Virus record (IMG/VR): IMGVR_UViG_3300024262_000126
Location: 1-34,409 of that record
From: a virus
Length of the DNA stretch: 34,409 bases
Reading direction: 5' to 3' (one strand)
Shown here: piece by piece, positions 7,021-26,957 of the stretch
Numbering within the stretch: the first letter of the stretch is position 1
How the letters are laid out: each line of letters begins with the position of its first letter
The notes under the pieces: generated by a model
Told to the model about the DNA's origin: nothing
The model's input: the letters and a program-made list of their open reading frames with translations, nothing else
Database searches by the model: none
Program-made: the position numbers and the translations under genes

Positions 7021-7049
7021 ATATTATAATAAAATTATTTTAATGTCAA
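7021..7049 (-). promoter_or_regulatory. Sigma-70-type promoter for the scaffold/capsid genes
   Basis: On the minus strand a perfect -35 box TTGACA (7044-7049) is followed by -10 TAATAT (7021-7026) with 17-base spacing, or by perfect TATAAT (7023-7028) with 15-base spacing. The -35 box overlaps the stop codon of the 1218-codon gene. The start site is expected near 7013, about 46 bases before the long hairpin. The similar promoter-hairpin pair at 19.6 kb supports a real control site. Confidence 0.7.
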
Positions 7050-10000
7050 ACATGCACAGCTCGGCCCGCTAATGAATAGCCGGTTATCGTGCCATCCTTT
7101 ATTCCTTTCCAGACTTTTTCATCTAATACTCGGGCGATTAATAACCAACTCCCTTTTTTTATTTTTTGATTATTTATCTCAAAATCCACTGGTGCAATAT
7201 AAATTTCCAATACTTTGGTATCAATGTATTTACCTTTGTGGTTAACCTTAAATTTTTGCGGACCTTCCATATAAGAATAAAGAGCTTTTCTTATCTCTTC
7301 TTCATTAGTAGTATCACCCTGGCTATCTACCTCATTCGGAGCATAGACGACCCCGCATACAATATGCTCATCTTCTTTCTTAGAGATATCAAATATGGGA
7401 ATAAATTTATTAAATTCATAATGCTTAGATTTTCCAGCCTCGGCTTCTTCCTTGAGTTTCGATACCATCCACACCCTTTCGCCCTTCTTCCCGGCCTCGG
7501 TGACCGGTACATAGGCAAAAAGGTAAATCCCCTCTGGTATTACCTCTACATTTTTTATTTTTAGTTTCTTAGCATGATCATCCTGTGGCTCAATTGCGTT
7601 CCAATCAAAATCATCAAGGATTAGCATAGCCCCATACTTATTAGTGGTAGCTCCCACTGTTCCTGGTGGGAACATCTCAATCTTATTCTTACCGGCTTTC
7701 ATCCATGAAACGGGTCCTCTAATCGTCTCTGCCTCCGGTTCTTCTACCCTCGGTACCTTCCAGCCAAACCTGAGCTTGCCACCTTCTTTCAACTTCTTCA
7801 ATTTATCTAAACCGGTAAGGTTTCCGATCATTATCTCCCCACCTTCAAAATAATCATCGCCTTTTCTGACCATTCTTAAATCAATATGGGCTCCTTGCTC
7901 ACCTATTGCGCCCTTTAATAGCATCTTTAATTTAGTCGGATTGGCTCTGGATCTTACTGCTTCAGCGGACACCTTCTTAAGTTCTGAAACTTTATCTTCC
8001 TCTATCCCCATTATGTGAAGCTGCAGAACCCCTTTGCCGGTATTTCCTATCACATAATCTATATTCCCTTCCTCCGCTTTCTGTAACGTACCCTTTTCTC
8101 TTAGAATTTCTCTCTCTTTTTCCCAGGCTTCCTCGTCATCAAATTCGTGTTTTTGGTACCAGCTGTCGGGCATATTACAAATCCCGCCTACCGGCTCTTC
8201 ATCTCCACATATCAGACAACGCGGGTGTCCGTTGGGATGGGTATATTTAGCTGCTTTAAACTCGTGAATCTTTCCTGCTAAAGGTTTCTTCTTATTTTCA
8301 TTAATAACGGCTGTCTCCTTCCCATATTCTTCTGTTTGCTTATTTGATAATTTCTTTTCCATCCCTTCATCTTTATAGAATTCTCTCTTTAATTCAGCCC
8401 AGATATTTGGATTTCTATTATCCCCAAATTTCTTTGCTGCTATTCCATCTTTTACTTCTTTAACAGAGATTATTTCACCCTTACCATCACCGGTTGTGGC
8501 CCATTCCTTGAAATGTTTCTCGCAAAACCAGGCATGGCCTATTCCCTCAGCCCATAAGCATTCATAAACGGGAGGATTAGAGCATTCCATACATTGATCT
8601 CTCTTATGCTGTGCCTTCTGTAATATATTCGCACGTTCAGCTATCCCTATCACCTGCTTAGCAAAATAAGGCTCTTTTCGGTCCTTATCAATATCCAATA
8701 CCCTTGGTCCTAGCCATTGCAATTTATCTTCTTGAGGTATAATTTCTTCAATGCCTATAGTCAATATATCTCCTACGTTAGCATTTATCTTGGTATTAAA
8801 GGTCTTACCTAAGTCAATATATTTCTTACCTTTGAATTCAATTAGATTAGTAAATTTACTATCCCCTGGCAGCAAACCGCAATGATAGTTATAACCGCCG
8901 GCCCGGTTAGGAATTTTCTTAATGGCTATTACCTTTATCTCCGCTTCTATCTTTATCTTAGCCCAGCCTTCAATACTCCCGTCAGTGTCCCAGATACTGT
9001 TTAGATCCTTAACCATTATGCCTTCGCTTTGAGGCAACTTAGATAATTTTTTAAACTGAGCTTCTAACTCTTTGCCATCTTTAACTATTATAAAATTGGT
9101 CAAGTCAAAATGGGGATCACCCTTTAGGTATTTACTATAAAACTTCTCTAACTGTTCTCTTCTCTCCTTTAGTGGCTTCTTATGCAGATCTTCTTTCCAG
9201 TAAGGCAAATCAAATATAGTAGCCTTTATAATATCCTTTTCTTCCAACACCGGCTCATCACTCATCAATGTCATTAGCATAATACGGGGTAAGGCCTTAC
9301 CATCCCTATCGATACCCAAGCCAAAATCAAGTATAAAATCGTCAGGAACCTTTTTTAATACCTCCACTAATTCCTCAAGTTGTTTAGTCCTATCTTTATC
9401 CCCTTCAGTTTTTAGCCTTAGTTTATCTCCCAGCTTTTCTGCTACACATCTAAAGGCATTAAGTTTTTCCTCCACGTCCAGAGGAAACCTATCCTTAGCC
9501 CAGTTTTCAATCTGGGAATATTCAAATGCTTCAGTAATTCTGGCCATCGTGGGCTTAGGTGGGATGAAGGTTCCGAAGGGTTTAAGGTTATCGGCTTTTT
9601 TGATTTTAGCCACCTTGATAATTGCTATAGCAGTATTGTCTCCATGGTCGACCATTTTAATTTCAGCATCTTTATCGAATAATGCTTTGAAATCATCTAT
9701 CTTAATAAACTCCTGTTTATGTGTCGGATCAAGCCTCTTTAAAAGTGGACTAATAAATATCACCTTATTTTCAGCTACCCGGATAGCTTCCTTAATAATT
9801 TCATCGGGATTCTTTAAATGTTCCAATATATGAAGACCGATAACATTACAGAAATAATTATCTTCATAAGGTAGTTTCTCTTTTTCCAGATCTACCTTTT
9901 TAACAGTTAAACCTTTCTTTTTGCACATTCCTAAGGCAAAGTCATTATTATCTAAGCCATCTACCTGGTAGTTATAATAATCCGAGTTTATCAAAGCCCG

Positions 10001-10702
10001 CATCACCCGGCCGGTTCCACAACCCAGATCTAGTATCGTCTTACCCTTTAAGTTTTTGGCCATCTCTGCAAAGTCATAGATAAAATCCTGCTTCCATTCA
10101 TCCAAGCCCTCATAATATTCTTTAATGCCTTTTTCTATTTCCTCCGATTTACTGTAATCTTCTTTAACTTCAACCCTGTCAATCCTATTTTTTGATCTTA
10201 GAACCAAATCAAAAAGCGGAATGTAAGTTGAATGAGCCCCGGTTTCATTATAAACAAAATGGCATTCCTTCTCGATCTGCTTCTGCATTAATCGGGACAG
10301 CTTCAATTCCAACCCTTCATCCCGGTTTTTTTCGTCTTCTCTTACAATTAAATCCAGGTCATCTGCATCCTTCGGGGATTTGACAAAACCGCCACCAATG
10401 GACACATAATCGGGAACTTTTACTATATCACCTAAAGAAGATGTATTTATCCCATACACATTTTTTCTGAATAATGCCCTATCGATGCTTTGAACACCAT
10501 GAGTGAGTTTCCTCTTATTCATCTCCTTAAGTAGCAATCTATATTGATCGAGGAAGCTATTCTTCTCTAATTTACCAACTTTCTGTCGATTATTATTTTT
10601 AAACCATTTATTGAAAAGTTGAATAAATCTCAAGCGCAGGCTATATAATTCATCATCTGAAATTTTACTTAATTCTTCTGAAGTCATTCCCTCTATCTTC
10701 AC
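7046..10702 (-). CDS. Giant multidomain protein: nucleotidyltransferase-like, methyltransferase, DNA ligase-like, zinc-binding and XkdF-like protease domains
   Basis: This 1218-residue protein reads as several domains in order. Residues 102-120 look like a nucleotidyltransferase ('GGGFVKSPKDADDLDLIV'). Residues 221-320 are a class I SAM methyltransferase ('ILDLGCGTGR'). Residues 375-670 follow the ATP-dependent DNA ligase order: 'EEKLNAFR' with K413 as candidate adenylated lysine, 'ILDFGL', 'EGIMVK' and 'WAKIKIE', then an OB-like part. Cys/His clusters lie at 704-730 and 826-842. Residues 880-985 with 'AHIDLRM' recall the LigD phosphoesterase. Residues 1110-1218 match the XkdF-like prohead protease ('GVVYAPNEVDSQGD', H1155, 'GYSLAGRA'). 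In the ligase motif Asn replaces Asp (KLN for KxDG), so activity is uncertain. The start is GTG with AGGTGA upstream. Position between the head protein and scaffold supports the protease role. Confidence 0.75.
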   Translation of the reverse strand: MKIEGMTSEELSKISDDELYSLRLRFIQLFNKWFKNNNRQKVGKLEKNSFLDQYRLLLKEMNKRKLTHGVQSIDRALFRKNVYGINTSSLGDIVKVPDYVSIGGGFVKSPKDADDLDLIVREDEKNRDEGLELKLSRLMQKQIEKECHFVYNETGAHSTYIPLFDLVLRSKNRIDRVEVKEDYSKSEEIEKGIKEYYEGLDEWKQDFIYDFAEMAKNLKGKTILDLGCGTGRVMRALINSDYYNYQVDGLDNNDFALGMCKKKGLTVKKVDLEKEKLPYEDNYFCNVIGLHILEHLKNPDEIIKEAIRVAENKVIFISPLLKRLDPTHKQEFIKIDDFKALFDKDAEIKMVDHGDNTAIAIIKVAKIKKADNLKPFGTFIPPKPTMARITEAFEYSQIENWAKDRFPLDVEEKLNAFRCVAEKLGDKLRLKTEGDKDRTKQLEELVEVLKKVPDDFILDFGLGIDRDGKALPRIMLMTLMSDEPVLEEKDIIKATIFDLPYWKEDLHKKPLKERREQLEKFYSKYLKGDPHFDLTNFIIVKDGKELEAQFKKLSKLPQSEGIMVKDLNSIWDTDGSIEGWAKIKIEAEIKVIAIKKIPNRAGGYNYHCGLLPGDSKFTNLIEFKGKKYIDLGKTFNTKINANVGDILTIGIEEIIPQEDKLQWLGPRVLDIDKDRKEPYFAKQVIGIAERANILQKAQHKRDQCMECSNPPVYECLWAEGIGHAWFCEKHFKEWATTGDGKGEIISVKEVKDGIAAKKFGDNRNPNIWAELKREFYKDEGMEKKLSNKQTEEYGKETAVINENKKKPLAGKIHEFKAAKYTHPNGHPRCLICGDEEPVGGICNMPDSWYQKHEFDDEEAWEKEREILREKGTLQKAEEGNIDYVIGNTGKGVLQLHIMGIEEDKVSELKKVSAEAVRSRANPTKLKMLLKGAIGEQGAHIDLRMVRKGDDYFEGGEIMIGNLTGLDKLKKLKEGGKLRFGWKVPRVEEPEAETIRGPVSWMKAGKNKIEMFPPGTVGATTNKYGAMLILDDFDWNAIEPQDDHAKKLKIKNVEVIPEGIYLFAYVPVTEAGKKGERVWMVSKLKEEAEAGKSKHYEFNKFIPIFDISKKEDEHIVCGVVYAPNEVDSQGDTTNEEEIRKALYSYMEGPQKFKVNHKGKYIDTKVLEIYIAPVDFEINNQKIKKGSWLLIARVLDEKVWKGIKDGTITGYSLAGRAVHV

Positions 10703-11017: not shown

Positions 11018-12703
11018 TTATAGCGCTCCTCTTACAAGTTTGTAAATAAAGTTGAAATATTCTGGGTCTTTGATAGCAAGTTTATAAGGGTCATTATAAA
11101 AATATTGCAGGCCCATGCTCAATATTTCTGTTGCCTGTCCTTTATAATCTTTACCCATATAGGCATCGATAAACTTATCTTTTCTGGTTAGCTCATCTCT
11201 TCCGAATCCAGATCCCAGCCATTCTAGAGGGCATCCTTTAGTTCTCTTGGTATAAAATTCCATTATTGTGCGGTGAACTTTACCGCTTGAATCTTCAATA
11301 AAATGTCCGAATTCATGAATAACGGTTCTATTGACTTCACTAAGTGAGTAGTAAGGTCCCGACCTGCTTAAGCATACCCCCTGTTTCATATCGTAAAACG
11401 CCCTTGAGTCTGCTTTCTTTATTAGAACTTCATATCTGCCTACTATATCTTTATTCACGAATTTTTCACACTCATCGATGGCTTTTAATATCTTGCGTTT
11501 TTGCTCTGGTCCTATATCCGGGAACAATATCTCGGGTCTGAATTTTGGACGGAGTGCCCTATCCACATATAGGTCATTGCGCATACCTATCTTCATTTGA
11601 TTAATGCTGTACCTTCTCTTGGCAGAGGCCTCTTTCATAAGGAGTCGATATCGATTAGTTTCTACCATATCTTTTTCCAGATAATAGGCGTTTTGCACTT
11701 TTTTCCTGTAAAGAGCAATTTCATTAGTTAATTTTCTCTGTTCTTCTATCTTATCTTTATATTTGGCTATAAGTTTATCGCTTGCTTTTTCTGGTCTCTT
11801 TGGTACCTTCGGTTTCTTCTTCGCTCTGGAAATTACTACAATCCAATGACACCGGCAATTAGGATGTTTTGGAAGGACTCCTCTAGCTTCGGCTCGCGTA
11901 AATCTTTGCCCCGCCAAATCCAGACATTCGGAACAGGCATCTCCGGCCGAAGATATCTCTACCTCTTCATACCGGGTTCCCTCCAATGAATCTAAATAGC
12001 CCTCGTTTACACTTCTTGATACTTCGGTCCTAGCTATTAATTCACTACGGTCTCTCAAAAGTCTATCATAACGTTTAGTATACTTTTGTAGATATAACTC
12101 TTTAGGGAGCTTCTGTGCCTCTAACGCTTTTCTATATTTCAGTAAGGCCGCACTCTGTCTCCCATTTAGCCCCACATCTTTTAAATGTTCTATATCCCTT
12201 GCTACTTGAGTAAGCGTCTTCCCTTCCTTCAATCCATGGGACACTATTTCCCGGATTCCTTTTTTTGTCTCCTTTTCTACCAGCGTGATTAATTCATAAG
12301 AATATTTCTCGGCCCACTTTACCGATAAAGGATTTATTACGTCAAAAGAAGCCTCGATTTTGGCATGCGCTCGGGATAAGTTGCCGGATCTTTCCATTAT
12401 ATTAAGATAGGCCGGTTTGATTATGCTCTCTCCTTCTTTTTCTATCGTTTCCCAATCTACATAATCTATTATTATTTGGGACTTGGATTTCTTTTCAATT
12501 TTTAGAATTCTATTTTTAATATCTCTGATAATCTGTTTCCGGGATAGTTGCATCCAATCCCGGACCTTAGGGTATAGATAGGCCTCACACTCATCCATCA
12601 ATTTAAGTATCTGCTTACTTAGCCTTTCCTTGCGGCCTACCTTCTCAAAAAATATATCTACAAGTTTATCCAATTCCTCTACGGTATTACTGGTTAATGG
12701 CAT
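11018..12703 (-). CDS. Mu F/SPP1 gp7-like head morphogenesis protein fused to a zincin metallopeptidase
   Basis: Residues about 1-290 are a phage head morphogenesis protein of the Mu gpF/SPP1 gp7 type. They end in 'ARTEVSRSVNEGYLDSL', C257-x2-C260, 'GQRFTRAEARGVLPKHPNCRCHW' with H280, C283 and C285, the family signature. A charged linker (295-375) follows. Residues 375-561 contain HEFGH at 463-467, a zincin HExxH motif, with E526 in 'QATEILSMG' as a candidate third zinc ligand. The protein would enter the procapsid with the portal; the peptidase may act in maturation or be delivered into the host. The second domain is firmly seen, its target is unknown. AGGAG lies upstream of the start. Confidence 0.8.
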   Translation of the reverse strand: MPLTSNTVEELDKLVDIFFEKVGRKERLSKQILKLMDECEAYLYPKVRDWMQLSRKQIIRDIKNRILKIEKKSKSQIIIDYVDWETIEKEGESIIKPAYLNIMERSGNLSRAHAKIEASFDVINPLSVKWAEKYSYELITLVEKETKKGIREIVSHGLKEGKTLTQVARDIEHLKDVGLNGRQSAALLKYRKALEAQKLPKELYLQKYTKRYDRLLRDRSELIARTEVSRSVNEGYLDSLEGTRYEEVEISSAGDACSECLDLAGQRFTRAEARGVLPKHPNCRCHWIVVISRAKKKPKVPKRPEKASDKLIAKYKDKIEEQRKLTNEIALYRKKVQNAYYLEKDMVETNRYRLLMKEASAKRRYSINQMKIGMRNDLYVDRALRPKFRPEILFPDIGPEQKRKILKAIDECEKFVNKDIVGRYEVLIKKADSRAFYDMKQGVCLSRSGPYYSLSEVNRTVIHEFGHFIEDSSGKVHRTIMEFYTKRTKGCPLEWLGSGFGRDELTRKDKFIDAYMGKDYKGQATEILSMGLQYFYNDPYKLAIKDPEYFNFIYKLVRGAL

Positions 12704-15868: not shown

Positions 15869-16276
15869 TCATCTGAATAGGATCCTGCTAGTCTTTGTTT
15901 CTTTCTCCTGCTCTTTTTTCGCTTTCATTAGATTAGCAAAAGTAAGTTCCAACGATACCTCGTGAGTAGTTTTATCTGACCATCTATCTTTAGCCCTATT
16001 CTTCAGCCAGAATATTTGAGCAGTAACATTACCTTTCAAGGCACTTGCATATAAAGCATCTTCTACGGTCTGGGTCCGACTATCGATAATTGATAATATT
16101 TTATTATCGAAACCTATATATTTTTTTCGCCATCTCCAAATAGTATCCCGGCTTAAATTTACTGCTTTACAAGCATCACTTATAGACACCCCGCCGGTAA
16201 GTGATTCTAAAAAATCTTCTTTTTGTCGATTTCTTGTCAGATTTGTCAGATTTTTTGCCGTTTCTCTTTTATTCAT
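15869..16276 (-). CDS. terS: Terminase small subunit
   Basis: A 135-residue protein with an N-terminal helix-turn-helix ('GGVSISDACKAVNLSRDTIWRWRKKY', residues about 28-54) of the phBC6A51/terminase small subunit type. A helical part follows ('VEDALYASALKGNVTAQIFWLKNRAKDRWSDK'), whose 'ALkGn..A..fwLknRa..~W.dk' pattern is the standard marker of these proteins. It would recognise phage DNA and load the large subunit. The start overlaps the upstream methyltransferase end by 8 bases. A lysine/glutamate-rich tail follows the conserved part. Confidence 0.85.
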   Translation of the reverse strand: MNKRETAKNLTNLTRNRQKEDFLESLTGGVSISDACKAVNLSRDTIWRWRKKYIGFDNKILSIIDSRTQTVEDALYASALKGNVTAQIFWLKNRAKDRWSDKTTHEVSLELTFANLMKAKKEQEKETKTSRILFR

Positions 16277-17705
16277 TATTTATCTTCACTGCTTTCTTCC
16301 CGGTAAATTTCTCATATCTTAATAAAATAACTTCCCCGTATATCGGTTCTATTTCTATCGCTCGACATTTCCTATGCATAATCTCGCTTGCTATAAGTGT
16401 TGATCCTGCCCCAGCGAACGGTTCGGCTATTATTCCATTTCGAGGGGATAATATCTTAATATAAGGAACTAAAATCTGAATTGGCTTTGTGCCGAATATT
16501 ATATTTTGCCCGCCCGATTTCCCTGTTTCTGCTGAATGGGTAATGTGGTCGGTTGCTCTAGCCCAGATAGTATTTTTTCTTCTATCCCAATAAGCTCCTT
16601 TTCCATGTTGTCCATATAAAATTACTTCATAGGTATCTAAAAGTTTTTGAGCCTTTTCTCTTAAATAATTTTCTAATTCTTCTTCGTATGCTTCATTTTT
16701 TATTCCTTCTCCAGCTAGTGGAGCGATATCATATTTGTTAAAAAAATATCCCGGTCTGGAAAATCCCTGACATCGATTGGGCAGCCACCAGATCACCATA
16801 TTCTTTATCTTCCAATACTTAGCTATGGCCTGCCATATCTCTATGGTATTCCTCCAGTTTTCAAAGACCATAACATTGGCTCCCTTGGGATTTTGAAAGT
16901 CATTAGCTATCGATAACCATTCGTCATATTCGGGAACTCCGCCTTTCTTCTCCACTCCTAAATAACTGCGCTGGCTCCGGTAACCAAAACCATTTTTAGT
17001 CTTAACCCATCCCTTGAATCTTCCTCTGCCATCAGTCTTTCCCACGCTTTCGTATACCTTATCCTTCTTTAACTTTACTCCCTCTTTAGTCTGTATCTTC
17101 CGGGCCCTCTTGGTGTAAGCTAATTTATAAGGTGGATCTGTAAACATAAAATCGAATCTTTCATTTCCAAACAATTTATCCCATTCGCTTCTATTAGTGC
17201 AATCTCCGATGATTAATTTATGCTCTCCCAGTCGCCATAAATCGCCATCGCTAACTCTCTTAATCCCTCCCTTAAGCAATTTCTCTAGTTCTTTATCAAC
17301 ATCAAACTCTTCATCAATATTTAAACCGAAAACATCATCCAATTCTTCCCTGCTAAATCCCACATCTACCAGCATTTCTTCATCGTAATTGGCCAGCAAA
17401 TCATAATCGAAATGCCCTAAATTTTTATTCAGTCTTAAATTCAATTCCTGCTCTTTTTCTAATTTAGTAATTTTCACATAATTAACCGGTATGGTTTTAT
17501 AGCCCATTTCCTTTGCTACTAATAATCTCTGGTGTCCACCGATAACTATATTTTTTCTATTTTCTGCAGAATTGACCACTATCGGTTCTACAAAATCAAA
17601 TCTTTTTAAACTTTCCTTTAAATCTTTGTATTCTTTTTCAGTCAGAGCCCGCGGATTATATTCTGAAGGATTAAGTTCTTCTATCGGTACATCTTTTATT
17701 TTCAT
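16269..17705 (-). CDS. ParB-like/DNA methyltransferase fusion
   Basis: A 478-residue protein. Residues 1-100 are a ParB/sulfiredoxin-like domain ('EYNPRALTEKEYKDLKESL', 'IVIGGHQRLLVAKEMGY' with GGHQR at 56-60). Then comes an amino-methyltransferase of the beta-order, with motif IV DPPY at 190-193 ('MFTDPPYKLAY') and motif I 'EPFAGAGSTLIA' near 436-447. It would methylate adenine N6 or cytosine N4 in a short site; specificity is not readable. A long inserted target-recognition region lies at about 200-330. It overlaps the upstream methyltransferase by 4 bases (ATGA). Likely protects phage DNA from host restriction and may mark packaging. Confidence 0.8.
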   Translation of the reverse strand: MKIKDVPIEELNPSEYNPRALTEKEYKDLKESLKRFDFVEPIVVNSAENRKNIVIGGHQRLLVAKEMGYKTIPVNYVKITKLEKEQELNLRLNKNLGHFDYDLLANYDEEMLVDVGFSREELDDVFGLNIDEEFDVDKELEKLLKGGIKRVSDGDLWRLGEHKLIIGDCTNRSEWDKLFGNERFDFMFTDPPYKLAYTKRARKIQTKEGVKLKKDKVYESVGKTDGRGRFKGWVKTKNGFGYRSQRSYLGVEKKGGVPEYDEWLSIANDFQNPKGANVMVFENWRNTIEIWQAIAKYWKIKNMVIWWLPNRCQGFSRPGYFFNKYDIAPLAGEGIKNEAYEEELENYLREKAQKLLDTYEVILYGQHGKGAYWDRRKNTIWARATDHITHSAETGKSGGQNIIFGTKPIQILVPYIKILSPRNGIIAEPFAGAGSTLIASEIMHRKCRAIEIEPIYGEVILLRYEKFTGKKAVKINNE

Positions 17706-19381
17706 ATTGTTAATTCTCCCTGCTTTTTTCTTTCTATATATTCTATTCTCTTTCGAGCTATCTCATAATATTCAATGCCCAATTCAACACCAGCATAATT
17801 TCTATTGGTATTTATACAAGCTACACAAGTTGTCCCCGTTCCCATGAAGGGATCTAAAACTATTTGTCCTTCTCTGGTTATAAGTTGTATGAGGTATTTG
17901 CAAAGTTTTTCTGATTTTTGTGTAGGATGCGAGACAATATGCTTTTGTTCACTATCAGGCTTACCATGTTTATGGTCTTCTCTTTCCTTTGTTGGAAAAG
18001 CATCTTGGCAGATATGACAATAGAACCACCTTTCATTTCTTGATGCTTTCGTACAATAAAAGAAGCGAGAAGCACCACCTACATCACCGAGTCCTGGTTT
18101 TATTCCTTCGTAATAGTTTTGTTTATATCCCCCTTGATATGCTTTTTCGTGTCCTGCTCTACCACCACTTGATTTACTTACCCCACTTTGCTCATCCACC
18201 ATATAGCAAGGACAATTCGGATCGGTGTGGATTAAGGTTTTTTCTTTACCATTTACTCCATAATGTTTCCCAGTTATACCAGTTGCACCAAAATTATTAA
18301 CAACACCATTTTCTCCTTTATGTTTATCTTTATCTTTCCAACCTGCCGTTTCTACTTCTCCCTCTACCACCTCATCACAAGTGCATTCTAAAATAAGATT
18401 TGCAGGATAACGACCTGTATTAATATTTGAATTTAGTAGCCCATATCCAAAAGTAGAGCCGAAACAAGTTTTCTTATATTTAACATTTTCAGATAATTGT
18501 TTATTATGATGACCATCTTTGAAATCTCCATTATCTTTGTATGATATCCTTCCCCCATCAATATTCAATCCACCTATACCCCATTTCAAAACATTTTCAG
18601 CAACTGTTTTTTCTGATAAGGGTTTCCTTACAAGCCACCAGCATTCTACGGCTGGTTTCAATCCTGTTCCCCAACCCTCCCATTTTTTGGCTTCGGTGGT
18701 TACGGGGGCAGTGACTGGTCGTATTCCCCCTTCATCTACTTTGCCAACATTAAATATGGATTTATCATTTCCAATTCCGTTTTTATTAGGTATCCCCCAA
18801 CAATCACTATCGGGATAAGCAATTGGTTTATGTCCTACTACCTCCCTAAATCCTTTCCACACTTTCTTAAACTCTTCTTTAGTCGGTTTCCTACCTAGCT
18901 TTTTTTCTAATTGCTCTCGGCACGCTCTGCGGTCTATACCCTTACTAATATTCAAACTTTTCGAAAATCCTTGCCCAAAAATATGATACACACAATCCCG
19001 AATTTCAAAACCGGCTTCCTCTAAAGCAAAAGCAGTCCAATGTGAAGTTCTTGGCAAGGCCCATACAAAAGCATGTCCGCCTGGTTTCAATATTCTTTTC
19101 GCCTCAGTCATTAAATCCGTGAGCCAACTGATAAATTGATTTCTCGCCTTTAAACTTTTGTCCCAATGAACATCACAAGCAAATCCTGGTGAACTGCAAT
19201 CATTGCCGGAGCCTGTTCTTCTACAAGAGTTCCCTCTACCACCCTTCGGAAATGTATCCCATTTCTCACCCATAAAACTTATCCCCGCGGGCGGGTCAGT
19301 TAACATTCCATCAAAAGAATTGTCCCCAAAAGTCCTTAATATCTCTTTGGAATCACCCTGTATTATTTTGTTCATGGACAT
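17702..19381 (-). CDS. DNA methyltransferase with DPPA motif IV
   Basis: A 559-residue amino-methyltransferase. After the start comes 'IIQGDSKEILRTFGDNSFDGMLTDPPAGISFMGEKWD', motif IV with DPPA at 29-32, then 'AKRILKPGGHAFVWALPRTSHWTAFAL'. Motif I, 'DPFMGTGTTCVA', lies near the C-terminus (FMGTG 512-516), preceded by 'SHPTQKSEKL'. A long middle region holds extra elements, including a Cys/His cluster in 'FYCHICQDAFPTKEREDHKH' that may bind zinc. DPPA instead of DPPY is unusual in general but occurs in this phage-rich subfamily. I chose ATG 19381, preceded by AAGGGAG. It is the first gene after the 19.6-kb promoter and hairpin. Confidence 0.8.
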   Translation of the reverse strand: MSMNKIIQGDSKEILRTFGDNSFDGMLTDPPAGISFMGEKWDTFPKGGRGNSCRRTGSGNDCSSPGFACDVHWDKSLKARNQFISWLTDLMTEAKRILKPGGHAFVWALPRTSHWTAFALEEAGFEIRDCVYHIFGQGFSKSLNISKGIDRRACREQLEKKLGRKPTKEEFKKVWKGFREVVGHKPIAYPDSDCWGIPNKNGIGNDKSIFNVGKVDEGGIRPVTAPVTTEAKKWEGWGTGLKPAVECWWLVRKPLSEKTVAENVLKWGIGGLNIDGGRISYKDNGDFKDGHHNKQLSENVKYKKTCFGSTFGYGLLNSNINTGRYPANLILECTCDEVVEGEVETAGWKDKDKHKGENGVVNNFGATGITGKHYGVNGKEKTLIHTDPNCPCYMVDEQSGVSKSSGGRAGHEKAYQGGYKQNYYEGIKPGLGDVGGASRFFYCTKASRNERWFYCHICQDAFPTKEREDHKHGKPDSEQKHIVSHPTQKSEKLCKYLIQLITREGQIVLDPFMGTGTTCVACINTNRNYAGVELGIEYYEIARKRIEYIERKKQGELTI

Positions 19382-19452
19382 CGACCTAATCTCCCTTTTG
19401 AACAATGCCCAAATGTTTCTCGAATCTTTGCCCAAAATTGTGTTTTTATTCA

Positions 19453-19519
19453 AAAATAAAAAATGACCTAAGCCCTCTCAAATTATTTTCCAATAATCCT
19501 CGAAAGAGCTTAGGTCATT
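19453..19519 (-). terminator. Long hairpin with U-tract before the methyltransferase/terminase genes
   Basis: On the minus strand a perfect 12-base-pair stem (19462-19473 with 19508-19519, key bases AATGACCTAAGC) encloses a CTTTC/GAGAG helix and an ATTATT/AATAAT helix capped by a GGAA tetraloop. A T-rich tail (19453-19461) follows. It fits an intrinsic terminator. It lies after a consensus promoter and 70 bases before the next start codon. Confidence 0.7.
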
Positions 19520-23915: not shown

Positions 23916-23958
23916 ATTTTTTCGTCTTTCTTTTTTTTGAGAAATTTAGATAAGAGAT

Positions 23959-23993
23959 AAGCAATCATACTCTAGCCTAAGGGCATATTGCTT
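23959..23993 (-). other. Hairpin just downstream of the IS110/Nop-type gene
   Basis: On the minus strand AAGCAAT (23987-23993) pairs with ATTGCTT (23959-23965) around a 21-base loop, six bases after the stop codon at 24000. There is no clean U-tract directly after it, so a terminator call is weak. Its edge AAGCAAT and loop size are reminiscent of the array hairpins on the other side of the gene, so it may be a stray array unit. Confidence 0.35.
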
Positions 23994-23999
23994 TTAGCA

Positions 24000-24932
24000 T
24001 TATCTCTCCACCATCTTTATTTCCCCATATAGCTCACCCAAGAATTTTGTCTGGATAAATTTCTTGGCATAATTATTTATCTTACCCTTTTTCCAATCGG
24101 GGTGTTTCTCTCCATAATATATCTTCATATCATCATATAACTTTCGCCAGATTGGAGTATTCTGTCTTATAATCTCCTCACTAAAGTGGAATAGTGCCCT
24201 CTTTAGTTGGTGATTAAATCTCTGATTTCCCTTCTTAGTGACCATTCCGGCATAGTGTCTCAAGGCATATTTATCGTTAAATCGAGAAGCCCTTTTGACC
24301 CCGGCTATCAGTCCACCGGCTACGGCAGGTCCCACTCCCTTTATCCCCTTTAAATAATCCTTCCAGACGGGGTGTTTCCTCACTTCTATTTGCAGTAGCT
24401 TAGTCTGAAGTTCAAAATCTTCTTCTAGGGCCTGGATAACTGCCTCCTTTTTCTCCACTGCCTCTTTCTCATATCCGTTCAGACTTACCAACTCTAATCT
24501 ATTCTTGAGAGCAAACAGTCTTAATTTAGTCGCCACCATAATCTTTTCAGTATCAGCACGCTCTTTGAATATTATACTGATCCGGGCGGTTATTTCGTCC
24601 AGCTCTTTAAATTCATAAAAATCTTCGGGGTGTTCTTTAATTAAAAGTTTTATGGCAAGAGCGTCATTCTCGTCTGTTTTTGGTAGCTTCAGGCTTTCCC
24701 GGCACTCCTTGGTTCTGATCCCCGGAAGAGTAAATATTTGATGGCCCTTTCTTCTAGCTAAAAGTTTGAAGGAGTCTCCACCACCTTCCTCGAAATAGAA
24801 GGAATTTTCCTCTTCTATCTTATCCAGAAATTTAGAGAATTCTCCGACGTTCGGGGTCATGGTTTTGGATTTCTCGTTCTTAAGGTCAAAGACCTTCAGT
24901 TCCTTTCTGATTGCCCATTTAACAAAATACAT
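24000..24932 (-). CDS. IS110/Nop-type RNA-guided protein, Tas-like (no transposase serine)
   Basis: A 310-residue protein with the IS110 layout. A RuvC-like N-terminus has E48/E49 in 'FYFEEGGGDSFKLLARRKGHQIF' and D87/D90 in 'KTDENDALAIKLL'. A helical middle (110-190) follows, then a helix-hairpin-helix 'IKGVGPAVAGGLIAG' (197-211), 'RFNDKYALRHYAGM' and 'KKGNQRFNHQLKRALFH' (233-249). Two things depart from IS110 transposases. The first RuvC aspartate is missing (A7 at the 'GIDVAK' position, with a TGA two codons before the start), and the loop carrying the catalytic serine is absent between 'YAGM' and 'TKKGN'. This matches Tas proteins (Nop domain, RuvC-like in TasR) better than a transposase. 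The start has AAAGGTG upstream. The array is 24 bases upstream. Confidence 0.8.
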   Translation of the reverse strand: MYFVKWAIRKELKVFDLKNEKSKTMTPNVGEFSKFLDKIEEENSFYFEEGGGDSFKLLARRKGHQIFTLPGIRTKECRESLKLPKTDENDALAIKLLIKEHPEDFYEFKELDEITARISIIFKERADTEKIMVATKLRLFALKNRLELVSLNGYEKEAVEKKEAVIQALEEDFELQTKLLQIEVRKHPVWKDYLKGIKGVGPAVAGGLIAGVKRASRFNDKYALRHYAGMVTKKGNQRFNHQLKRALFHFSEEIIRQNTPIWRKLYDDMKIYYGEKHPDWKKGKINNYAKKFIQTKFLGELYGEIKMVER

Positions 24933-24955: not shown

Positions 24956-25013
24956 AGGCAGAAGCAAATTCGGTATAGCTTTTTTTCCGCGTATTGACCT
25001 TAGCATTCTGCCT
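24956..25013 (-). repeat. Array hairpin 12 of 12, type A1
   Basis: Minus-strand stem AGGCAGAA with TTCTGCCT, then a bulged T and a GC pair. 5' edge TGCTAAGG, middle AAAAAAAGCTA, 3' edge TTTGC. Interior about 37 bases. Closest unit to the protein gene. Confidence 0.7.
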
Positions 25014-25028
25014 ACAATATTTTTTTTT

Positions 25029-25076
25029 GGAAGCAAATCTTGATCAGCATATTAAACATTTTTGTTTTAGCTTTCC
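25029..25076 (-). repeat. Array hairpin 11 of 12, type A2
   Basis: Minus-strand stem GGAA(A)GC with GCTTCC, bulged A. 5' edge GCTAAAA, middle ATGTTTAATATGCT, 3' edge TTTGC. Interior 35 bases. Middle and edges match the unit at 25704 almost base for base, while the flanking stretches differ. Confidence 0.7.
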
Positions 25077-25087
25077 GTCTCTTCAGG

Positions 25088-25143
25088 CGGAGATAAATTT
25101 CAATTAGTAGTTCTTTCGAATACAATCATATATTAGTGCTCCG
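25088..25143 (-). repeat. Array hairpin 10 of 12, type B
   Basis: Minus-strand stem CGGAG with CTCCG. 5' edge GCACTAAT, middle AAAGAACTAC, 3' edge TTATCTCC. Exactly 56 bases, the same length as the type B unit at 25393, with matching start, middle and end and differing stretches between them. Confidence 0.7.
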
Positions 25144-25166
25144 TTCTTTTTTCTAATCTCTAAAAT

Positions 25167-25223
25167 GGACAAAAGGCAATTTTGGCCTAAACGGATAAGT
25201 CATTGTAATTTTAGCTCTCTGTC
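25167..25223 (-). repeat. Array hairpin 9 of 12, type C
   Basis: Minus-strand stem GACAGAGAGC with GCCTTTTGTC holds two G-U pairs and one mismatch; on the plus strand the same positions would be A-C mismatches. 5' edge GCTAAAAT, 3' edge AATTGCC. Confidence 0.6.
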
Positions 25224-25249
25224 TGTTCCCATATCAAAATAAGGTCCCG

Positions 25250-25318
25250 GGTAAGTAGAGAGTAATCATTTCTTAGTAGGGTCTAACCTACATTTCATAA
25301 ATAGCATCTCTACTTACC
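25250..25318 (-). repeat. Array hairpin 8 of 12, type A1-like
   Basis: Longest stem in the array, GGTAAGTAGAG with CTCTACTTACC, 11 perfect pairs. 5' edge ATGCTATTT. An extra small hairpin GTAGG/CCTAC sits in the interior, so the middle motif is less clear here. Confidence 0.6.
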
Positions 25319-25326
25319 AAATTTTC

Positions 25327-25381
25327 TTGGAAGCACATCTTAGCTTTAGCACTCAGGCAAATCTATAATAATAGCTTCCAA
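25327..25381 (-). repeat. Array hairpin 7 of 12, type A2
   Basis: Perfect 8-base-pair stem TTGGAAGC with GCTTCCAA, no bulge. 5' edge GCTATTATT, middle TTGCCTGAGTGCT, 3' edge ATGTGC. Interior 39 bases. Confidence 0.7.
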
Positions 25382-25392
25382 TCTGCTGGGAT

Positions 25393-25448
25393 CGGAGACA
25401 AAAGCTTAACAATAGCTCTTTACATTACATTTATGATTTAATACCCCG
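25393..25448 (-). repeat. Array hairpin 6 of 12, type B
   Basis: Minus-strand stem CGGGG with CTCCG, one G-U pair that exists only in minus-strand RNA. 5' edge GTATTAA, middle AAAGAGCTAT, 3' edge TTGTCTCC. 56 bases, equal to the other type B unit at 25088. Confidence 0.65.
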
Positions 25449-25464
25449 CCCTAAGTTTGGAAAT

Positions 25465-25517
25465 GGACAGAGGCATTTGACTTATAAAGGATTCATCCCT
25501 CTTCCAACTCCCTGCCC
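25465..25517 (-). repeat. Array hairpin 5 of 12, type C
   Basis: Minus-strand stem GGGCAGGG with CTCTGTCC, including G-U pairs. Edge 3' AAATGCC. The 5' edge GGAGTTGG is the most diverged of all twelve. It shares AATGGACA-AGGCA (plus-strand reading) with the other type C unit at 25167. Confidence 0.55.
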
Positions 25518-25552
25518 ATCTCTCCTATCTAAATCATATCGTCCATCTAATA

Positions 25553-25612
25553 ATAGAAGCATATATTTAGTAATAAGTTCCCCCAATCTACAGTTCCCTA
25601 TTAGCGTTCTAT
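25553..25612 (-). repeat. Array hairpin 4 of 12, type A1-like
   Basis: Minus-strand stem ATAGAA with TTCTAT, a bulged C and then a GC pair, the same bulge position as in the A1 units. 5' edge CGCTAATAGG, middle GGGGGAACTTAT, 3' edge TATGC. Interior about 43 bases. Confidence 0.6.
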
Positions 25613-25634
25613 CTAGTGGTCCTTTTTAATAAAA

Positions 25635-25691
25635 AAGCAGAAGCATCTTTTCTTCAACTTTTTTAAGAAGTCTCTCCTTAGCATTCTGCCT
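25635..25691 (-). repeat. Array hairpin 3 of 12, type A1
   Basis: Minus-strand stem AGGCAGAA with TTCTGCTT, one G-U pair, bulged T. 5' edge TGCTAAGG and middle AAAAAAGTTG match the unit at 24956; the stretches on either side of the middle differ. Interior 36 bases. Confidence 0.7.
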
Positions 25692-25703
25692 CGCCATACC
25701 TTA

Positions 25704-25755
25704 CCGAAAGCATCTTTATTGCAGCAATTTAAGCAATTTTATTATAGCTTTCCGG
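25704..25755 (-). repeat. Array hairpin 2 of 12, type A2
   Basis: Minus-strand stem CCGGAAAGC with GCTTTCGG, one bulge. 5' edge GCTATAA, middle TTGCTTAAATTGCT, 3' edge GATGC. Interior 35 bases, equal to the A2 unit at 25029. Confidence 0.7.
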
Positions 25756-25760
25756 CTCAT

Positions 25761-25825
25761 TGGGGCAGAGACATGCCTCTTCTGATAGTTTTTTAGATAT
25801 AAGATACCATTAGTACTCCACCCCA
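25761..25825 (-). repeat. Array hairpin 1 of 12, type B
   Basis: Minus-strand stem TGGGGTGGAG with CTCTGCCCCA, ten pairs of which two are G-U; on the plus strand these become A-C mismatches. 5' edge GTACTAAT, middle AAAAAACTAT, 3' edge TGTCTC. First unit in transcription order. Confidence 0.65.
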
Positions 25826-26210: not shown

Positions 26211-26957
26211 TTAGATAAGAATTTTGGTTCTTTCAGGAAATTCTTTCACCTCTTCTAGATAAATTCCTTTTAAGCTATCTTTTAGATAAATAGGGATTTT
26301 ATCTTTTCTGCAATAATCAACTATGTTTTCTATCCATTCTTTTTTTGGTATGATCTTCCCCTTTCTGTTCCCAGTCTCGGCACCGATAATAACCCAGTCA
26401 ATATTTGCATTTGAAAATGGCACAGGGTTAAAATACTCAAGAATGGGCTCAACTGATACAAAAGTTATATTACAACTCGTAATAAATAGATAAGGTATCC
26501 CTCTCTCAAAATCTTTTTCTCTTGTTATGGTCACTCCTAACCAGCAGTTCTTTGGGAAAATATACCTATCGTAAACTTCCGGATATCTTGTCAAAAATTG
26601 GAAGATGTGCTGGGGATATAATTTTACTTTTTCCAATACTTTTTTTATCCATTCATCTTCCCAATTAGCTATCTCGCTCATCGATCCCACAAATATCTTT
26701 TGGGACTTTTGGGGAAATTTCTTCTCGAATTGAGAATAAAGAAACATAAGCTTAAATTCAATCAAATCGAGAGAATTTTTTAATTTAAAATGAACATCAT
26801 CCATATTATGTTCAACTCTATATTCCCATTCCTCTATGAATCTTATGCCCCCAAACCTTTTTGCGAATATCCTCGCGTAGCAATAAGGACATCCTCTATT
26901 TCTGCAACCCCACACCGGATTCCAGGTGAGATTACACCAGCCAATCTTATTTTTCAT
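26211..26957 (-). CDS. Phage Gp37/Gp68 family protein (DUF5131), radical SAM-like
   Basis: A 248-residue protein with the family hallmark 'TWNPVWGC...GCPYCYARIFAKRFGG', giving C18-x4-C23-x2-C26, a [4Fe-4S]-type cluster arrangement as in radical SAM enzymes. Further family segments are 'KIFVGSMSEIANWEDEW', 'HIFQFLTRYPEVY', 'NCWLGVTI', 'FVSVEPILEYF' and 'DWVIIGAETGNRKGKIIPKKEW'. The reaction is not established to my knowledge. It overlaps the preceding 59-residue gene by 11 bases. Together with the gene at 20291 the phage encodes two radical SAM-like proteins. Confidence 0.8.
   Translation of the reverse strand: MKNKIGWCNLTWNPVWGCRNRGCPYCYARIFAKRFGGIRFIEEWEYRVEHNMDDVHFKLKNSLDLIEFKLMFLYSQFEKKFPQKSQKIFVGSMSEIANWEDEWIKKVLEKVKLYPQHIFQFLTRYPEVYDRYIFPKNCWLGVTITREKDFERGIPYLFITSCNITFVSVEPILEYFNPVPFSNANIDWVIIGAETGNRKGKIIPKKEWIENIVDYCRKDKIPIYLKDSLKGIYLEEVKEFPERTKILI

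What the first reader, a model, noticed from the sequence alone, without database searches (positions are those of the whole stretch)
24000..24932. IS110-like protein without the transposase serine and without the first RuvC aspartate
Between 'YAGM' and 'TKKGN' IS110 transposases carry a loop with the catalytic serine; here the loop is missing. At the position of the first Asp of the DEDD set stands A7, and an in-frame stop two codons before the ATG rules out a longer N-terminus. E48/E49, D87 and D90 remain. The protein should not transpose and may have no or altered nuclease activity, perhaps using D16. It could bind DNA under RNA guidance without cutting, as proposed for nuclease-free Tas proteins.
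Basis: partly seen in the sequence, partly recalled or inferred. Interest (0 to 1): 0.75.

Follow-up and report, generated by a model that had tools for sequence, protein, structure and literature searches.

The report
Phage TIGR-Tas guide array, disarmed nuclease
A phage carries a row of 13 small two-part guide RNAs around a relative of the RNA-guided DNA-cutting enzyme TasR whose first catalytic acid has become a lysine, so it probably finds DNA by RNA guidance and binds it without cutting.

Summary
The ORF (minus strand, 24932-24000, 310 aa) is not a crippled IS110 transposase. I count 12 units upstream and one overlapping its stop codon. Each typical unit has a bulged stem, then box C (CTA), a 9-nt spacer, a TG box, a loop, box C', a second 9-nt spacer and a TG box. 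A unit scan finds 9 units against 0.13 in shuffles.

A 55%-identical phage relative (L095) reads VDWA, and HMMER aligns its Asp to TasR D11, whose D11A mutant is published as catalytically dead. The window reads VKWA. The second copy (G001) also has K5. Purifying selection holds (dN/dS about 0.09), so this is a maintained, naturally disarmed TasR.

Between the two phages, stems are kept while spacer pairs are nearly unchanged or replaced, A and B together. Arrays show tandem duplication. No convincing target was found. The most likely role is RNA-guided DNA binding without cleavage. This is a new variant of a known kind.

The parts
24000..24932 (-). tasR-like gene, 310 aa: RuvC-fold domain (about residues 1-107) and Nop/coiled-coil domain (about 108-310)
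24918..24920 (-). codon of K5, in place of the catalytic Asp (TasR D11, L095 D7)
24786..24791 (-). E48/E49, retained RuvC acid of the EEGGGDSFKLL motif
24663..24674 (-). D87 and D90 of KTDENDA, retained RuvC acids
25762..25824 (-). TIGR unit U0 (class II, A-U closing pair; 11/12-nt spacers)
25704..25755 (-). TIGR unit U1, spacers TAATAAAAT/CAATAAAGA, identical in G001
25635..25691 (-). TIGR unit U2, spacers AGGAGAGAC/AAGAAAAGA, replaced in G001
25552..25613 (-). TIGR unit U3, spacers ATAGGGAAC/CTAAATATA, identical in G001
25460..25522 (-). TIGR unit U4, 13-bp stem kept, spacers GAAGAGGGA/TAAGTCAAA replaced in G001
25388..25451 (-). TIGR unit U5 (class II; placed partly by synteny with G001)
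25327..25381 (-). TIGR unit U6, spacers TTATAGATT/AAGCTAAGA
25250..25318 (-). TIGR unit U7, 12-bp stem, spacers TTTATGAAA/AGAAATGAT
   Evidence: z -5.8
25167..25226 (-). TIGR unit U8, spacers AAATTACAA/GGCCAAAAT, one change in G001 (weak stem, placed partly by synteny)
25087..25144 (-). TIGR unit U9 (class II)
25027..25078 (-). TIGR unit U10, spacers AAACAAAAA/ATCAAGATT (short stem; block copy of U1)
24956..25013 (-). TIGR unit U11, spacers AGGTCAATA/TACCGAATT
23952..24008 (-). TIGR unit U12; its 5' arm contains the tas stop codon; spacers AAAGCAATA/GAGTATGAT, one change in G001; compensatory TAA/TTA to TGA/TCA change

Best explanation
[quoted passage not shown] The array is transcribed on the minus strand across 25824-23952 (inferred). 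Each hairpin unit yields a guide with two short spacers, mostly 9 nt, framed by C/D boxes (inferred from the published stem arrays). A Tas dimer binds one guide through its Nop domains, and the two spacers pair with opposite strands of one 18-20 bp target (inferred from TasR). The RuvC domain has lysine in place of the metal-binding Asp and keeps E, D and D, so the complex holds and bends DNA without cutting it (inferred from the published dead D11A mutant, which still binds processed guides). The likely use is to repress or block chosen sites of the host or of rival elements, with a constant set of guides and a changing set.
For: Protein: TasR is the best solved relative; TIGR_Tas_endo scores far above IS110; the model matches IS621, TasR, TasH and Nop5. 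Array: 9 units against 0.13 per shuffle, maximum 1. Over the window and several related phage records, units of this form cluster only beside tas. TG stands exactly 9 nt after box C in 17 of 21 class I units, and YTR exactly 9 nt before box D in 21 of 21. Arms pair better with their own partner than with those of other units (0 of 5000 permutations). 25 changed stem pairs stay canonical, 13 of them by two-sided change, against 7 broken. Dead site: K5 at D11, the same in both phages; the paper reports that D11A abolishes cleavage while the protein still binds processed tigRNA (PMC12045711). Selection: dN/dS 0.085 overall, 0.12 in RuvC and 0.07 in Nop. Spacers: U1, U3, U8 and U12 show 2 differences in 72 sites, P 5e-7 against the third-codon rate, and A and B divergence correlate across units, rho 0.91.
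Against: There are no RNA data. No full 18-of-18 target was found in any record searched, so DNA targeting is unproven here. The NCBIfam Tas match is under its curated cut-off (76 against 100 bits). E48/E49, D87, D90 and the whole EEGGGDSFKLL motif remain, so some altered nuclease activity cannot be excluded. Units U5, U8 and U10 were placed partly by synteny and by eye. The four frozen units were picked after seeing the data.
Confidence: 0.72

Rival explanations
1. The protein still cuts or nicks DNA: E48/E49, D53, D87, D90 or D16 rebuild a metal site despite K5.
For: E48/E49, D53, D87 and D90 are conserved in all three Tas proteins, and the RuvC domain is under purifying selection.
Against: Mutating the same Asp to Ala kills TaTasR (PMC12045711); Lys is worse for a metal site (general knowledge). 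The shared motif is also present in L095, which has the normal Asp, so it is not a compensation. D16 is absent from L095.
Confidence: 0.12
2. The array works on RNA, not DNA: a box C/D-like guide RNP that pairs with transcripts, possibly recruiting a methyltransferase or acting as antisense.
For: A Nop-fold protein with an inactive RuvC domain and C/D boxes resembles Nop5 (Z 8.4-8.5); the paper speculates that inactive TasR may be an intermediate toward snoRNPs. No DNA target was found.
Against: TasR did not act on RNA (PMC12045711). No fibrillarin or L7Ae among the ORFs scanned. An RNA with two independent antisense elements would not need A and B to change together.
Confidence: 0.1
3. A decayed or recently dead IS110 transposon whose flanking hairpins are remnants of bridge RNA.
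For: Pfam labels the C-terminus as an IS110 domain; the best fold matches by Z are IS110 proteins, though nine of eleven rows behind the model were IS110.
Against: The gene keeps dN/dS 0.085. The array has 13 ordered units, in a conserved place in two phages, with covarying stems. Tas profiles fit better.
Confidence: 0.02
4. The hairpins are ordinary phage intergenic structures (terminators, processing sites) and the box spacing is coincidence.
For: Individual z-scores are modest for several units.
Against: Box spacing of exactly 9, absence elsewhere in the related phages, shuffle controls, and recovery of a new tas gene (L095) from a collection of phage contigs by the unit pattern alone.
Confidence: 0.03

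Closest known systems
TIGR-TasR of Thermoproteota archaeon LB_CRA_1 (TaTasR, PDB 9mty; PMC12045711)
   Same: RuvC plus Nop layout, about 310-330 aa, D87 and D90 at the same residue numbers, guides with paired 9-nt spacers between C and D boxes
   Different: TaTasR has D11 and cuts DNA; its array is of the dual-repeat kind with CCA and UG boxes. Here the Asp is Lys, the array is of the stem-loop kind and box C is CTA.
Stem-loop TIGR arrays (TasA locus of the Peromyscus leucopus gut metagenome; PMC12045711)
   Same: Palindromic stems, variable linkers, two 8-12 nt spacers between boxes, 13 units
   Different: That locus encodes TasA without a nuclease domain; here the effector has a RuvC domain, dead in the window and with an intact tetrad in L095.
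Inactive TasR clade of CPR bacteria (PMC12045711)
   Same: Inactive RuvC domain together with stem arrays
   Different: That clade is described with large Nop insertions and in CPR bacteria; this one is compact and phage-borne, and has a close relative with an intact tetrad. Its members' sequences were not at hand, so a direct comparison was not made.
IS110 family transposases (IS621, ISCro4)
   Same: RuvC-like plus Nop-like fold; E48, D87, D90 motifs
   Different: No serine loop, no first Asp, many hairpin guides instead of one bridge RNA.

Membership tests
TIGR-Tas (TasR type) | Nop-domain protein related to Tas by sequence | tested here: met
   TasR in PDB E 1.3e-13, L095 relative 3.2e-19; NF052498 E 3.9e-21 but 76 bits, under its curated cut-off of 100
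TIGR-Tas (TasR type) | N-terminal RuvC-fold domain | tested here: met
   model pLDDT about 90 over the domain; TasR Z 10.1, RuvC Z 8.3
TIGR-Tas (TasR type) | adjacent array of paired 8-12 nt spacers between C and D boxes | tested here: met
TIGR-Tas, stem-array subtype | palindromic arms and variable linkers in place of the two repeats | tested here: met
TIGR-Tas (TasR type) | array processed into unit-length guides bound by Tas | not testable with these tools
   needs RNA sequencing of pulled-down protein
Active TasR nuclease | four RuvC acids with D11 essential | tested here: not met
   K5 stands at D11; L095 has the Asp
[quoted passage not shown]
   310 aa; no large insertion in the Nop domain relative to TasR in alignment A2, only one segment about 12 residues longer; clade members not at hand
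IS110 transposase | DEDD tetrad | tested here: not met
IS110 transposase | catalytic serine in the loop after AGL | tested here: not met
   loop absent in A5
IS110 transposase | element ends and a single bridge RNA | not tested
   ends not sought; instead 13 hairpin units in a conserved phage context
Box C/D sRNP (Nop5) | Nop domain working with fibrillarin and L7Ae | tested here: inconclusive
   fold match Z 8.4-8.5; no such partner among the ORFs scanned, but not all ORFs were scanned

The most novel reading that the evidence does not exclude
TIGR arrays may need no adaptation machinery: they grow by tandem duplication of whole hairpin units (in L095 starting from the 3' end of tas itself), and the two spacers of a unit are then rewritten together inside a fixed scaffold, so that a phage carries a frozen set and a fast-changing set of guides for a naturally nuclease-dead TasR that works as a programmable DNA roadblock or repressor.
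Probability: 0.35. Interest if true: 0.82.

Novelty: new variant of a known kind. Interest (0 to 1): 0.63.

Why it matters
TIGR-Tas systems were described in 2025, with open questions on what cutting-deficient Tas proteins do and how arrays arise and grow (PMC12045711). This locus offers a compact natural equivalent of the laboratory D11A mutant, a 55%-identical relative with an intact tetrad and the same kind of array, and two phages in which the same array can be compared unit by unit. That comparison separates guides that are held constant from guides that are replaced as pairs, which makes both questions directly testable. A natural dead TasR with its own guide format may also be a useful small DNA-binding tool.

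Tried and rejected
Structure from a two-row alignment: mean pLDDT 37.5, discarded; the usable model needed nine viral IS110 rows, so its likeness to IS110 is partly built in. No atomic coordinates were available, so the geometry of the metal site was not measured.

A7 as the lost Asp: suggested by alignment A5 and by a whole-length profile alignment, rejected because of L095 and TasR.

Homologue searches with P0001 in viral contigs gave only G001 and G002; a fragment profile added a distant TasA-like protein (L028) and four FEN-type nucleases that are false matches. Two scans of genome contigs found nothing. INPHARED and PLSDB gave nothing convincing. So no non-viral relative and no host was identified.

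Target search: no excess over mispaired spacers at up to 2 mismatches in the window, G001 and nine related phage records. G001 unit U2 has one 17-of-18 match in its own genome at 12308-12325 inside a 235-aa ORF; by the mispaired controls about 0.02 such matches are expected for this rule, or 0.09 over the four rules tried, so it is only a hint.

Other single-unit hits of the array pattern in viral contigs (for example L073, L074, L080, L081) had no tas gene by tblastn and were left as likely chance. Rfam has no matching family. Promoter and terminator scans were not above shuffles in a useful way. A chimeric query was used once only to read more of the TasR chain and is not evidence. A remnant of the tas 3' end downstream in G001 did not exceed shuffles (27 against a maximum of 30) and is not claimed.

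Full report
What was checked. The ORF at 24000-24932 is real, lies on the minus strand and encodes 310 aa. An in-frame TGA stands two codons upstream of the ATG and a ribosome-binding-like AAAGGTGA just before it, so there is no longer N-terminus in this frame. The window is a virus record with portal, terminase, head morphogenesis, head maturation protease and DnaB-like helicase genes. Alignment with viral IS110 proteins shows the loop with the catalytic serine gone, and E48, D87 and D90 under invariant IS110 acids.

What the protein is. The best solved relative by sequence is not an IS110 protein but 9mty, TIGR-TasR (E 1.3e-13). NCBIfam gives TIGR_Tas_endo at 3.9e-21 and IS110 at 4e-11; both are below their curated cut-offs. 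Two other phage records (G001, 76 kb, and G002, identical to it in the region compared) carry a 90%-identical copy. A model made from P0001, the G001 copy and nine viral IS110 proteins has mean pLDDT 75.5, about 90 in the RuvC domain. It aligns over its whole length to IS621 (Z 12.9) and TasR (Z 10.1, 23% identity, the highest identity among these), and in part to TasH, Nop5 and RuvC. Because IS110 rows dominated the alignment behind the model, the order of these Z values should not be used to choose between IS110 and TasR.

Which catalytic residue is lost. The third member settles it otherwise. L095 begins MLNYAVDWATKKDLAI and is 54.7% identical to P0001. HMMER aligns it to TasR from the N-terminus, with its D7 on D11 of TasR (LAVDWS). 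MAFFT aligns this D7 with K5 of P0001 (VKWAIRK against VDWATKK). D11 is the residue whose D11A mutant was used as dead TasR: no cleavage, yet RNA processing and binding persist (PMC12045711). The change is therefore Asp to Lys, encoded AAA in both phages. L095 has D7, the Glu and both later Asps, so by sequence its tetrad is intact. The loss of Asp in the window lineage is the simplest reading, since both L095 and TasR have it. The gene is not decaying: dN/dS is 0.085 overall, 0.12 in the RuvC part and 0.07 in the Nop part.

The array. Directly upstream of the gene on its own strand lies a row of hairpins. Written out, a typical unit is: 5' arm, one bulged base, G, box C (CTA), 9-nt spacer A, TG, loop, box C' (CTA, TTA, CTG or TTG), 9-nt spacer B, TG, C, 3' arm. 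Three units (U0, U5, U9) have an A-U closing pair and a spacer B of about 12 nt. A scan that scores these features finds 9 units in the 1,058-base upstream region, against a mean of 0.13 and a maximum of 1 in 30 dinucleotide shuffles. U5, U8 and U10 were added by synteny with G001. A further unit, U12, overlaps the stop codon of tas; between the two phages its stem changes from TAA/TTA to TGA/TCA, so the stop codon and its partner change together. G001 has three more units downstream. Across the window, most of G001, and stretches of related phages without tas, units of this form cluster only at tas; the few other hits at the threshold break the spacer rule or stand alone. The spacing is sharp: TG exactly 9 nt after box C in 17 of 21 class I units and YTR exactly 9 nt before box D in 21 of 21. 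The scan rewards offset 9, and registers were set by hand, so these counts are not fully independent, but stems fixed most registers. Arms pair with their own partners better than with those of other units (5.56 of 6 against 4.02; 0 of 5000 permutations), and 25 changed pairs stay canonical, 13 by change on both sides, against 7 broken. Arms were chosen for pairing, so the synteny comparison is the stronger of the two.

This is the anatomy that Faure et al. [quoted passage not shown] They tested such an array only for a TasA. They also mention an inactive TasR clade of CPR bacteria with large Nop insertions and stem arrays. The present protein is compact and phage-borne.

A prediction that came true. 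The unit pattern alone, without any protein, was scanned over the viral contigs. Of 58 contigs, three carried a cluster of units of this form: G001, G002 and L095 (L088 gave five scattered hits that break the spacer rule). L095, found this way, then proved to encode a Tas protein between its units, with a downstream unit overlapping the 3' end of tas, as in the window. The 9-nt spacing of L095 is built into the pattern and is not independent evidence; the tas gene is.

How the arrays change. Compared unit by unit, the window and G001 share order and stems, while spacers fall into nearly unchanged pairs (U1 0+0, U3 0+0, U8 1+0, U12 1+0 differences in 9+9), intermediate ones (U0, U9, U10) and replaced ones (U2 6+6, U4 6+5, U6 7+7, U11 5+6, U5 and U7). 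Divergence of A and B is correlated across units, rho 0.91, as expected if both specify one target. Some of this correlation could come from different ages of units. The four frozen units show 2 changes in 72 sites where the third-codon rate predicts about 18 (P 5e-7; the units were picked after the fact). Within the window, the stretch around U1 is a copy of the stretch around U10 (local score 58, shuffles at most 29). In L095, neighbouring units repeat every 78-79 bases, and the first repeat includes the 3' end of tas, with spacers far more different than the scaffold. Growth by tandem duplication followed by spacer replacement is the simplest account. How spacers are rewritten is unknown.

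Mechanism. Shown here: gene, array anatomy, K5 in place of the catalytic Asp, selection on protein and array, pairwise spacer change. Inferred from TasR and stem-array TasA: transcription and processing of the array, one guide per Tas dimer, pairing of the spacers with opposite strands of a target that reads spacer B, 0-2 nt, reverse complement of spacer A, and a sharp bend of the DNA. Inferred from D11A: no cleavage. Most likely use: a roadblock or repressor at chosen sites. No target supports this yet; the host is unknown, though DnaB and Lin1244-type proteins hint at Gram-positive phage relatives.

Verdict. The finding is real and better than stated: the residue is K5, the family is TIGR-TasR, and the guide array is present. 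It is a new variant of a known kind.

Noticed in passing
window 7046-10702 (-): A 1,218-aa ORF joins a MetW-like methyltransferase, an ATP-dependent DNA ligase-like domain and an XkdF-type phage serine protease, an unusual combination.
   Followed up: no
window 16269-17705 (-): A ParB-like domain fused to a DNA methyltransferase, next to a second methyltransferase ORF at 17702-19453; ParB-like genes have been reported beside some TasA loci, but this one is about 6 kb from tas.
   Followed up: no
window 26211-26957 (-): A DUF5131 protein (phrog_2045) is encoded just upstream of the array on the same strand; a matching stretch lies upstream of the array in G001.
   Followed up: no
G001:12308-12325 (L006:12308-12325, minus strand): A 17-of-18 match to the target predicted for G001 unit U2, with no gap, inside a 235-aa ORF of the same phage; about 0.02 expected from mispaired controls for this rule, so only a hint of self-targeting.
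   Followed up: partly
L007:1547-1960: G001 has three further array units downstream of tas that the window lacks.
   Followed up: partly
L028:2653-3852: A viral contig encodes a 399-aa protein with a match to the Nop-domain motif of P0001 and no RuvC motif seen, probably a TasA-type protein.
   Followed up: no
L073, L074, L080, L081: Several viral contigs share one isolated unit-like hairpin (CTA TGATTTACT TG AGTA CTA TTTTAGTGT TG) without a detectable tas gene nearby.
   Followed up: no
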